Below, one piece after another: positions 4,190-9,772 of a stretch of 44,286 bases of DNA. Origin of the DNA: a bacterium (GTDB lineage Bacteria > Hydrothermota > Tepidihabitantia > Tepidihabitantales > Tepidihabitantaceae); assembly GCA_035505375.1 (NCBI GenBank), contig DATJQV010000038.1, forward strand, positions 1-44,286. Direction: 5' to 3'. The notes under the pieces are model-generated. The model was not told the origin of the DNA. It ran no database searches and was given only the letters and a program-made list of their open reading frames with translations. The first letter of the stretch is position 1. Each line of letters begins with the position of its first letter. A program made the translations under genes and the position numbers.

Positions 4190-4369
4190 CTACTGTTCGA
4201 TCGAGGCGGACGCCTTGTTGATGCTCTTCGAGACGATTCCCTTGACGAGCCTGAAGGCGACAATGGCAGCCACGACGACGAATACCACGATCACAACGTA
4301 CTCAAGCATCGTCTGGCCGCTCTCATCCGACAATAGGGCCCTGCCGGCCCCGAACGCTCTGCTCAGCAT
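4190..4369 (-). CDS. flp: Flp-type prepilin 1 (59 aa)
   Basis: A 59-residue prepilin. A basic, short leader (MLSRAFGAGRALLSDES) precedes G|QTMLEYVVIVVFVVV, the Flp cleavage signature with Glu at +5 and Tyr at +6; a short tail ends in SIEQ. After cleavage the mature subunit would be about 41 residues, a typical Flp major pilin. An AAGGGGG ribosome site precedes the ATG. Its own sigma-54 promoter lies at 4549-4564 and the transcript opens with the conserved hairpin (4503-4532). Very similar to prepilin 2; the two are recent duplicates. Confidence 0.92.
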   Translation of the reverse strand: MLSRAFGAGRALLSDESGQTMLEYVVIVVFVVVAAIVAFRLVKGIVSKSINKASASIEQ

Positions 4370-4548: not shown

Positions 4549-4564
4549 TGCACGTCGCGTGCCA
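4549..4564 (-). promoter_or_regulatory. Sigma-54 promoter of prepilin 1
   Basis: TGGCACGCGACGTGCA on the minus strand. The -24 GG and -12 GC are separated by exactly 10 bases, as sigma-54 requires. The -12 box is GTGCA rather than TTGCA. It lies about 180 bases before the ATG at 4369. Confidence 0.85.
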
Positions 4565-4844: not shown

Positions 4845-4880
4845 GTCTCTCCTGCGATACTCGTGTCTCCGACGGGAGAC
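4845..4880. promoter_or_regulatory. Tandem palindromes, putative activator sites (prepilin 1)
   Basis: Two copies of a GTCTCY-N4-RGAGAC-type palindrome. The first (4845-4860) is GTCTCT-CCTG-CGATAC. The second (4865-4880) is a perfect GTCTCC-GACG-GGAGAC. They start 20 bp apart, near two helical turns, and lie about 280-315 bp upstream of the prepilin 1 sigma-54 promoter. Confidence 0.55.
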
Positions 4881-4922: not shown

Positions 4923-5102
4923 CTACTGTTCGATCGACGTCGATGCCTTCTCGATGCTGCGGTGCACTGTGCCCTTGACCAGCCTGAAGGCGACGATCGC
5001 CGCGACAACGACGAAAACGACTATGACGACGTACTCGAGCATCGTCTGGCCGCTTTCATCCGAAAGCAGGGCCTTGCCTGCCTCGAACGCTCGGTTCAGC
5101 AT
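4923..5102 (-). CDS. flp: Flp-type prepilin 2 (59 aa)
   Basis: A 59-residue paralogue of prepilin 1, differing mainly in the tail (GTVHRSIEKASTSIEQ). It keeps the SG|QTMLEYVVIVVF cleavage and assembly signature. The same AAGGGGGTCATATC sequence precedes the ATG. It has its own sigma-54 promoter (5278-5293) and leader hairpin (5234-5263), so the prepilin copies are separate transcription units rather than one operon. A major Flp pilin subunit by family; whether copies are co-expressed or alternative cannot be read from sequence. Confidence 0.92.
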   Translation of the reverse strand: MLNRAFEAGKALLSDESGQTMLEYVVIVVFVVVAAIVAFRLVKGTVHRSIEKASTSIEQ

Positions 5103-5277: not shown

Positions 5278-5293
5278 TGCACTTAGTGTGCCA
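5278..5293 (-). promoter_or_regulatory. Sigma-54 promoter of prepilin 2
   Basis: TGGCACACTAAGTGCA on the minus strand, with GG and GC exactly 10 bases apart. It lies about 176 bases before the ATG at 5102, the same geometry as prepilin 1. Confidence 0.85.
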
Positions 5294-5328: not shown

Positions 5329-5344
5329 GTCTCCAACCAGAGAC
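5329..5344. promoter_or_regulatory. Palindromic site close to prepilin 2 promoter
   Basis: GTCTCC-AACC-AGAGAC, matching the recurring palindrome with one inner mismatch. It begins 36 bp upstream of the -24 box, closer than a usual enhancer. Confidence 0.4.
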
Positions 5345-5463: not shown

Positions 5464-5499
5464 GTCTCACTCGGGTGACGCGAGTCTCCGCTGCGAGAC
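5464..5499. promoter_or_regulatory. Tandem palindromes, putative activator sites (prepilin 2)
   Basis: GTCTCA-CTCG-GGTGAC (5464-5479) and GTCTCC-GCTG-CGAGAC (5484-5499), starting 20 bp apart. They lie 171-206 bp upstream of the prepilin 2 sigma-54 promoter, a normal distance for a looping activator. The rest of the 5103-5631 gap holds the prepilin 2 leader and no gene I can see. Confidence 0.55.
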
Positions 5500-5631: not shown

Positions 5632-5811
5632 TCAGTCCGGCACGATCGACGTCGAAGTGGTCTGTATGCTTCGATGCAGAAGCGGTCCGACCACCCTTAG
5701 TGCAATGCCCATGACGATACACACGAAAACCACTATCACCACGTACTCGAGCATCGTCTGACCGTTCTCGTCCAGCAGAAGAGCCTTGCCGGTCCCCGTC
5801 ACTTTGCTCAT
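5632..5811 (-). CDS. flp: Flp-type prepilin 3 (59 aa)
   Basis: A 59-residue prepilin starting MSKVTGTGKALLLDEN with the NG|QTMLEYVVIVVF signature, then a tail unlike prepilins 1 and 2 (RVVGPLLHRSIQTTSTSIVPD). The ATG at 5811 is preferred over the one at 5832 because it has GAGGGAG upstream, gives the same 59-residue length as the others, and the extra seven residues match the ribosome-site region of the paralogues. It has its own sigma-54 promoter and leader hairpin. Presumably an alternative or minor Flp subunit. Confidence 0.9.
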   Translation of the reverse strand: MSKVTGTGKALLLDENGQTMLEYVVIVVFVCIVMGIALRVVGPLLHRSIQTTSTSIVPD

Positions 5812-5945
5812 CACAATGACTCCCTCGGCCATGCCATGTTGTAGTCCTCCGACCGCCGACTACGTCGCGCCCCGGTCTCTGCGACTGTCTCGCAGGCGGC
5901 TCGCACTCTTTCTCGACGGCGGGCTAAAGCCTTTCGTCAGTACCT

Positions 5946-5991: not shown

Positions 5992-6007
5992 TGCACGCGG
6001 CGTGCCA
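5992..6007 (-). promoter_or_regulatory. Sigma-54 promoter of prepilin 3
   Basis: TGGCACGCCGCGTGCA on the minus strand; GG and GC are 10 bases apart. It lies about 180 bases before the ATG at 5811. Confidence 0.85.
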
Positions 6008-6565: not shown

Positions 6566-7924
<1,359 letters not shown>

Positions 7925-8219: not shown

Positions 8220-8399
8220 CTATGGCTCGGGATAAACTGATGTTGGCGTGGCACCGCGGTGCACGCTGCTCCTTATCGTCCTGAAAGTGATGATCGACCC
8301 CAGGACGACGAAAACCACCAGCACGATCAACTCAATCAACTTCGGACCGTTCCTTTCCGACAGCAGTGACTTGACGCCACCGAGATCTCTACGCAGCAT
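8220..8399 (-). CDS. Divergent Flp-like prepilin 4 (59 aa)
   Basis: Again exactly 59 residues, from the ATG at 8399 with TGGGAG upstream. The overall plan is kept (LLSERNG then a hydrophobic helix), but the signature QTMLEYVV has become PKLIELIV: Pro sits directly after the Gly of the predicted cleavage site, Glu at +5 is kept and Tyr at +6 is Leu. Pro at +1 would be expected to hinder cleavage by prepilin peptidase. The gene keeps a good sigma-54 promoter (8577-8592) and the leader hairpin. It may be a non-processed regulator-type pilin or a decaying copy. Confidence 0.8.
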   Translation of the reverse strand: MLRRDLGGVKSLLSERNGPKLIELIVLVVFVVLGSIITFRTIRSSVHRGATPTSVYPEP

Positions 8400-8528
8400 G
8401 ATGACTCCCACTGGTCCCGTCATGTTGTGGTCCTGTCACGACCCGCAACTTCAGGCTCCACCGAATGCACACACGGGAGCTGAAGCGCGTCGACTCCGTA
8501 CATCAGACCAAGAACTTACACTCGTATC

Positions 8529-8576: not shown

Positions 8577-8592
8577 TGCATGCGGCGTGCCA
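8577..8592 (-). promoter_or_regulatory. Sigma-54 promoter of prepilin 4
   Basis: TGGCACGCCGCATGCA on the minus strand; GG and GC are 10 bases apart. It lies about 178 bases before the ATG at 8399. Confidence 0.82.
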
Positions 8593-8826: not shown

Positions 8827-9165
8827 TCATTCCGACGCCGTGACCAGCTCTGTCTCCACCGGGAGACTCACGGCCTCCGGCATGAGGTAGCCGTCGTCGT
8901 CATGCGGGGTGAACCAGCTCTTGGTCCGGGCATGAGTCGGCGGAACGATTCCGTGGCGCTTCATGATCCGGTAGAGGCTGGGTCGAACGACGCCCAGCAG
9001 TGCGGCCGCTTCCGCCACATCGTTGCCAGTCTGCTGAAGCGCGCGCTCGACGGTCTCGCGCTCGGCCCTGTCCAAGGCCGCCTTCAACGTCGTCTTCTCT
9101 ATTTCTCCTACCATGTTGCTGTCAATACTACTGGGAAGCCCGCTTCGTGCGCTCTTAACGTTCAC
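8827..9165 (-). CDS. Stand-alone Fis-type HTH protein, paralogue of activator C-terminus
   Basis: 112 residues from a GTG at 9165; an ATG at 9114 is an alternative. Residues 28-74 (ALDRAERETVERALQQTG onward to SLYRIMKRHGI) are almost identical to the DNA-binding end of the sigma-54 activator, but no receiver or AAA+ domain is present. A 35-residue tail follows. It could bind the same palindromes without being able to activate sigma-54, acting as a competitor, repressor or Fis-like architectural factor. The helix-turn-helix call is firm; the role is inference. Its 3' part contains a perfect GTCTCC-ACCG-GGAGAC palindrome (8852-8867). Confidence 0.75.
   Translation of the reverse strand: MNVKSARSGLPSSIDSNMVGEIEKTTLKAALDRAERETVERALQQTGNDVAEAAALLGVVRPSLYRIMKRHGIVPPTHARTKSWFTPHDDDGYLMPEAVSLPVETELVTASE
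8852..8867. promoter_or_regulatory. Perfect GTCTCC-N4-GGAGAC palindrome inside the HTH gene
   Basis: GTCTCC-ACCG-GGAGAC, within the coding end of the stand-alone HTH gene and 260 bp upstream of the prepilin 4 promoter. It could serve that promoter at a distance; being inside codons, it may also be chance. Confidence 0.4.
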
Positions 9166-9312: not shown

Positions 9313-9348
9313 TGCAGCCGGACGTGGAGGTTGGCACGTCCGGCTGCA
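9313..9348. other. 14-bp perfect inverted repeat
   Basis: TGCAGCCGGACGTG and CACGTCCGGCTGCA face each other across an 8-base loop. No T-run follows on either strand, so a simple intrinsic terminator is unlikely. It could be a protein-binding palindrome or an RNA structure. Confidence 0.5.
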
Positions 9349-9620
9349 TGCTAAGGCGGCAATTGCCGGAGACCAAAGAGGCGAATCTCCCGCAGTCCGC
9401 GACGGTTCGCGATGTAACCCGTGGCTTGAGCATCAGGCTGGATGCACTTTATGATCCCACATCCCTTAACCCCGAGCAACTCGTACATTGCATCAATCGT
9501 GCCAAAGACAAGAGAATGCTGCAATTAAACGGGCCACCGCGCTATCAGGCAGAAGCCACTCGGGGCGAGGACTACTCAAGGCTGTTGTCGCCTGCAGAGA
9601 ATCACATCGGTACAGGTCTT

Positions 9621-9657
9621 GTCTCCCCTGAGATACTAGCCGTCTTCGGCAGGAGAC
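9621..9657. promoter_or_regulatory. Tandem palindromes like the prepilin enhancer sites
   Basis: GTCTCC-CCTG-AGATAC (9621-9636) and GTCTTC-GGCA-GGAGAC (9642-9657), starting 21 bp apart. The whole 40-bp stretch aligns closely with 4842-4882, including the CCTG spacer and GATACT. It lies 456 bases upstream of the stand-alone HTH gene. Confidence 0.5.
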
Positions 9658-9772
9658 ACGCTCGCTTGTGGTGAAGAGCGCGGTCACGACAGTCGCCGAT
9701 CGGAGACAAGTCAATAACCGGAAGCGCAGTCAGGTCGATGGGCTCGGACTACAATGGGCGCAGAAAGCCAGC

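What the first reader, a model, noticed from the sequence alone, without database searches (positions are those of the whole stretch)
8827..9165. Stand-alone DNA-binding domain duplicated from the activator
The 47-residue Fis-type core is nearly identical to the activator's C-terminus, yet no ATPase is attached. Such a protein could occupy the same palindromes without opening sigma-54 complexes, giving built-in repression or a threshold for pilus expression.
Basis: partly seen in the sequence, partly recalled or inferred. Interest (0 to 1): 0.6.

Follow-up and report, generated by a model that had tools for sequence, protein, structure and literature searches.

The report
Stand-alone activator DNA-binding domain, enhancer-controlled
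Next to a gene that switches on pilus genes in an uncultured WOR-3 bacterium lies a small gene that copies only the DNA-gripping end of that switch; it has been kept by natural selection in related species and carries the switch's own type of control site, so it probably acts as a built-in brake on the switch, although this is untested.

Summary
The observation largely holds. A 112-codon ORF (8827-9165, minus) encodes one Fis-type HTH and no AAA+ domain. It is 82% identical to the neighbouring sigma-54 activator (6566-7924) over the 45-residue core, with an identical recognition helix, and 72% over 58 aa; "nearly identical" overstates it. It is not a decaying remnant: at about one synonymous change per site the core differs at only 8 of 45 residues (29 expected if neutral), and orthologous or parallel solo HTHs occur in five of six available genomes of the genus. 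I identified the probable binding site, tGTCTCCnnnnGGAGACa, usually in tandem 21 bp apart, upstream of strict sigma-54 -24/-12 sites. The window has five such sites (0.11 expected): four precede Flp-like pilins, the fifth (9489-9504), with a tandem enhancer at 9621-9657, precedes the solo gene. Solo-activator homology runs past the stop codon into the downstream enhancer, so solos arose by duplication of [activator 3' end + enhancer]. Best model: an activator-induced, dimeric DNA-binding-domain-only competitor at shared enhancers (negative feedback). Origin, architecture and constraint are supported; competition is inferred. In relatives the same solos sit in a CsbD/KTSC envelope-type regulon without Flp pilins found, so the function is not pilus-specific.

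The parts
8827..9165 (-). stand-alone Fis-type HTH gene (solo), 112 codons from GTG; start uncertain
   Evidence: weak RBS
8956..9090 (-). HTH core (TLK...IMKR, 45 codons), purifying selection
   Evidence: structure
8852..8867 (.). enhancer palindrome GTCTCCACCGGGAGAC inside the solo's 3' tail; probably serves pilin 8220-8423
9489..9504 (-). sigma-54 -24/-12 site TGGCACGATTGATGCA of the solo gene
9621..9657 (.). tandem enhancer palindromes (9621-9636, 9642-9657; 21 bp apart), 117 bp upstream of the solo promoter
9692..9707 (.). third enhancer-like palindrome, 1 mismatch
6566..7924 (-). cognate NtrC-type activator: receiver, AAA+ with GSFTGA, Fis HTH
6608..6742 (-). activator HTH core, the duplicated parent segment
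8220..8423 (-). divergent Flp-like pilin, Pro at the predicted +1 position; probably degenerate
8577..8592 (-). sigma-54 site of pilin 8220-8423
5632..5832 (-). Flp-like pilin
5992..6007 (-). sigma-54 site of pilin 5632-5832
4923..5102 (-). Flp-like pilin
5278..5293 (-). sigma-54 site of pilin 4923-5102
5464..5499 (.). tandem enhancer palindromes (5464, 5484); a further single one at 5329-5344
4190..4369 (-). Flp-like pilin
4549..4564 (-). sigma-54 site of pilin 4190-4369
4845..4880 (.). tandem enhancer palindromes (4845, 4865)

Best explanation
The gene encodes a DNA-binding-domain-only paralogue of the neighbouring sigma-54 activator. It arose when the activator's 3' end was duplicated together with the enhancer lying just downstream of it (supported by sequence). 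The copy now has its own sigma-54 promoter and tandem enhancer, so it should be transcribed only when the activator is active (inferred from motifs). Its product should form a Fis/NtrC-type dimer that binds the same GTCTC-N6-GAGAC sites (inferred from the identical recognition helix and the predicted fold). Lacking the ATPase, it cannot open sigma-54 promoters, so as it accumulates it should displace the activator and damp the regulon: a delayed negative-feedback brake (inferred, not shown).
For: Only HTH_8, no AAA+. 82% core identity and identical recognition helix. AlphaFold core pLDDT above 90; nearest solved folds are E. coli Fis and the NtrC4 DNA-binding domain (3E7L, 0.7 A over 44-49 columns). 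Five sigma-54 sites in 44 kb versus 0.11 expected, all heading regulon units, one heading the solo gene. Ten of the 11 palindromes with at most 1 mismatch lie in 4.8-9.7 kb; 21-bp spacing in 16 of 20 tandem pairs, and no tandem pair for three control patterns. Enhancer pair, promoter, leader, HTH and 3' enhancer align with a relative, G004. Core omega 0.09 against the activator, 0.20-0.25 among type-1 solos, 0.08-0.37 among type-2 solos. A neutral solo would give about 29 rather than 8 changes. Type-2 solos lie between a CsbD gene and the same downstream gene in three genomes; in G004 C422 the contig begins too near to see CsbD. Solo-activator homology runs into the downstream enhancer.
Against: No binding or expression data. 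No convincing Shine-Dalgarno for the window copy, although the G004 copy has one. Leader of about 310 nt between the predicted start site and the GTG. Two relatives show decay: G002 solo1 has recognition-helix changes R to C and MK to TE, and only a fragment remains in G003. The HTH tree is too short to resolve the order of duplications. Tails outside the HTH are poorly conserved. Assignment of the palindrome to this activator rests on co-occurrence.
Confidence: 0.45

Rival explanations
1. Enhancer or promoter hitch-hiker: duplicating enhancer-promoter modules to control new genes carries the activator's 3' end along; the short ORF persists as a by-product with little or no role.
For: Homology extends through the stop codon into the enhancers; decayed copies in G003, G005 (L039 9889-10119) and partly G002; the pilin next to the window solo looks degenerate (position differences 23/21/26); weak RBS.
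Against: Strong purifying selection on the HTH only, with dS about 1; the adjacent pilin diverges equally at all three codon positions while the HTH does not; type-2 synteny across species.
Confidence: 0.22
2. Positive or architectural partner: the solo dimer binds the tandem enhancer as a Fis-like architectural factor, or heterodimerises with the activator, and helps rather than blocks enhancer function.
For: Closest fold is Fis; Fis is reported as NtrC-derived (Morett and Bork 1998, cited in PMC7166090); enhancers are tandem; in G004 the activator's own recognition helix is interrupted while its solo is intact.
Against: A domain without the ATPase at the same site removes an activator dimer from that site; no evidence for stimulation.
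Confidence: 0.2
3. Separate regulator with drifted specificity that controls other genes.
For: Type-2 solos carry a fixed P-to-T change at the start of the recognition helix.
Against: The window solo's recognition helix is identical to the activator's; the known palindromes cluster at this regulon.
Confidence: 0.1

Closest known systems
C-terminal DNA-binding domain of NtrC-family enhancer-binding proteins (e.g. Aquifex NtrC4, PDB 3E7L/4FTH)
   Same: Fold (0.7 A), family HTH_8, tandem palindromic enhancer upstream of sigma-54 sites
   Different: Encoded as a separate gene without receiver or AAA+ domain, and under its own sigma-54 promoter
Fis nucleoid-associated protein
   Same: Stand-alone small Fis-type HTH; literature derives Fis from an NtrC-type regulator (PMC7166090 citing Morett and Bork 1998); E. 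coli Fis is the top fold match
   Different: Far below NCBIfam Fis cut-offs (17 vs 122 bits); linked to a local regulon; its parent activator is still next door
PrsR (TIGR02915) sigma-54 response regulator of PEP-CTERM genes
   Same: Best NCBIfam relative of both activator and solo; sigma-54 promoters with an upstream, sometimes repeated motif
   Different: Activator scores 390 vs cut-off 502.6; the published motif 1 ends in TTTACA (PMC1569441), unlike GTCTC-N6-GAGAC; no stand-alone HTH mentioned in the passages read
SypG/LuxO pair sharing overlapping enhancers at qrr1 in Vibrio fischeri (PMC10162802)
   Same: Two related regulators using the same enhancers
   Different: Both are full activators with ATPase; neither is a DNA-binding-domain-only form

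Membership tests
HTH_8 (Pfam PF02954) domain | score above the gathering cut-off | tested here: met
   35.5 vs 22 bits
NtrC-type sigma-54 activator | AAA+ sigma-54 interaction domain | tested here: not met
   absent in the solo; present in 6566-7924
Fis (NF002517 / NF001659) | score above curated cut-off | tested here: not met
   17 vs 122 bits for NF002517; NF001659 not listed for the window solo, 24 vs 99 bits for the G004 solo
Fis | dimeric Fis-type fold | tested here: inconclusive
   monomer model matches Fis, probability 1.00 but E 0.03; dimer not modelled
PrsR (TIGR02915), activator | score above 502.6 bits | tested here: not met
   390.3 bits
PrsR | motif ending TTTACA before the sigma-54 site | tested here: not met
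   enhancer consensus is GTCTCC-N4-GGAGAC
Domain-only competitor of an enhancer-binding protein | binds the activator's enhancer and lowers transcription | not testable with these tools
   needs EMSA/DAP-seq and a reporter
Pseudogene / remnant | loss of coding constraint | tested here: not met
   omega 0.09; neutral simulation 0 of 5000

The most novel reading that the evidence does not exclude
A genus-wide circuit in which sigma-54 activators repeatedly shed their DNA-binding domain, through duplication of the enhancer-linked 3' end, as separate genes under the activator's own enhancers, giving auto-induced brakes: a present-day parallel to the proposed birth of Fis from NtrC.
Probability: 0.4. 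Interest if true: 0.66.

Novelty: new variant of a known kind. Interest (0 to 1): 0.52.

Why it matters
Sigma-54 promoters are usually thought to be controlled by the activator's signal domain and ATPase; a DNA-binding-domain-only paralogue induced through the same enhancers would be a simple extra control layer that could limit the response. It also shows a concrete route (duplication of an activator's 3' end with its downstream enhancer) by which Fis-like proteins can arise, with intermediate and decayed stages visible among related genomes.

Tried and rejected
Chance similarity: rejected. Recent copy or untranslated remnant: rejected for the HTH core. Pilus-specific role: weakened, since no Flp pilins were found in the relatives' fetched regulon stretches. 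Hidden AAA+ remnants upstream of the solo: tblastn found homology only from the linker/HTH on. HTH tree to date the duplications: unresolved. PDB sequence search of the solo: no hit; the fold search gave Fis and NtrC4 instead. Genome-contig scan: one WOR-3 activator locus and one distant one only. Class-wide search: no further solos of this kind outside the genus. Laying out the whole own genome was not available. Literature searches found no described stand-alone enhancer-binding-protein DNA-binding domain, but the library is partial.

Full report
WHAT IS THERE. The minus-strand ORF 8827-9165 (112 aa, GTG start) contains one Pfam HTH_8 (Fis-type) domain, residues 31-70, and nothing else. It is 72% identical over 58 residues to the C-terminus of the sigma-54 activator 6566-7924 and the DNA repeat is 175 nt at 75%. 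In the 45-residue core there are 8 differences (82% identity); the recognition helix RPSLYRIMKR is unchanged. The window comes from a candidate-division WOR-3 genome: a same-family genome in the set (G010) holds a contig of the same length and with the same activator match as JAFGQF010000247.1, a WOR-3 MAG.

THE REGULON. A strict sigma-54 pattern (TGGCAY-N6-TGCA) occurs five times in 44 kb, all on the minus strand between 4.5 and 9.5 kb, against 0.11 expected. Four sit about 170-195 nt before Flp-like pilin genes (4190-4369, 4923-5102, 5632-5832, 8220-8423). The fifth, 9489-9504, is upstream of the solo HTH. The palindrome GTCTC-N6-GAGAC is the probable enhancer: ten of the eleven sites with at most one mismatch lie in 4.8-9.7 kb; over six regulon loci its consensus is tGTCTCCC..gGGAGACA, and tandem pairs are 21 bp apart in 16 of 20 cases (20 bp in 3, 22 bp in 1), while three control patterns gave no tandem pair. 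Genome-wide exact matches concentrate on the activator contig in G000, G002, G003 and G005. The solo's own promoter has a tandem pair at 9621-9657, 117 bp upstream.

RELATIVES. Five of six genomes of the genus carry solo HTHs. Type 1 lies near the activator (window, G004 L038:8142-8456, G002 L036:8669-8950; a fragment in G003). Window 9720-8820 aligns with G004 over the whole unit: tandem enhancer, sigma-54 site TGGCAYGATTNNTGCA, a conserved leader block, HTH, and an enhancer in the 3' tail. Type 2 (ILRTSLYRIMKR) lies upstream of the same gene in four genomes, with a CsbD gene upstream of it in three (G002, G003, G005; the G004 contig starts too close, CsbD confirmed by Pfam for G002). In these relatives the regulon stretches hold CsbD, KTSC, DUF883-like and OmpA genes, with no Flp pilin found there. 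The activators' input domains also differ: receiver in G000, G004 and G010, PAS in G002, G003 and G005.

ORIGIN. DNA homology between solos and activators does not stop at the stop codon: the G004 solo and the G005 activator align over 308 nt (76%), and the G002 solo and the G010 activator over 246 nt (71%), into the downstream enhancer. tblastn finds no ATPase remnant upstream of the solos. The duplicated unit was therefore probably the activator's 3' end plus its downstream enhancer. The window solo's C-terminal tail contains such an enhancer (8852-8867).

IS IT FUNCTIONAL? Between window solo and activator dS is about 1.0 and dN 0.09 (omega 0.09); solo-solo values are 0.20-0.25 (type 1) and 0.08-0.37 (type 2), while the N-terminal regions show no clear constraint. 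With a neutral solo lineage, simulation gives 29 changed residues on average and never 8 or fewer in 5000 runs; even if the solo had been neutral for only a tenth of the divergence, P is 0.006. The adjacent pilin 8220-8423, by contrast, differs from its paralogues about equally at all codon positions and has Pro at the predicted +1 site. Against function: no convincing Shine-Dalgarno in the window copy, and decay in G002, G003 and one G005 copy.

MECHANISM. The predicted fold (core pLDDT above 90, tails disordered) matches E. coli Fis and the NtrC4 DNA-binding domain, both dimeric DNA binders by established knowledge. Shown: gene, fold class (predicted), constraint, motif architecture, origin by 3'-end/enhancer duplication. 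Inferred: expression from the sigma-54 promoter, dimerisation, binding to the same sites, and net repression. I judge negative feedback the most likely (0.45), ahead of passenger (0.22), architectural or heterodimer partner (0.20) and separate specificity (0.10).

KNOWN KINDS. It works like an isolated NtrC-family DNA-binding domain and resembles Fis, which has been proposed to descend from NtrC (Morett and Bork 1998, as cited in PMC7166090). It is not a Fis family member by NCBIfam cut-offs and not an enhancer-binding protein, lacking AAA+. The activator's nearest named family is PrsR, but it falls below the cut-off and the enhancer differs from the published PrsR motif. Searches of the held papers found no described stand-alone counterpart; that is weak evidence of novelty.

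Noticed in passing
L003 1507-1719 and 2383-3156 (own genome contig C41): A second, unrelated case: a 70-aa stand-alone Fis HTH (63 bits) downstream of another sigma-54 activator, with genes that look like an MNT nucleotidyltransferase/HEPN toxin-antitoxin pair between them; the HTHs share 86% DNA identity over 123 nt.
   Followed up: partly
L041 4557-6909 (G015): A third case: an HTH copy (78% DNA identity over 99 nt) downstream of an activator, with a HicAB-like pair between them.
   Followed up: partly
window 6566-7924: The activator's receiver has Asn (N53) where the G004 relative has the expected phospho-acceptor Asp; in three relatives the receiver is replaced by a PAS domain. The activator may not be controlled by phosphorylation.
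   Followed up: partly
L038 7300-7460 (G004): The G004 activator's recognition helix is interrupted by an insert of roughly 120 nt that looks repeat-like, while its solo HTH is intact.
   Followed up: no
window 8220-8423: Pilin copy with Pro at the predicted +1 processing site (GPKLIEL versus GQTMLEY) and no third-position excess: probably degenerate.
   Followed up: partly
window 9313-9348: Perfect 14-bp inverted repeat in the solo leader, without a T run.
   Followed up: no
L049 7302-8331 (own genome C75): Another enhancer cluster with a sigma-54-like site, upstream of a 1116-aa secreted-looking protein: a possible further regulon member.
   Followed up: no
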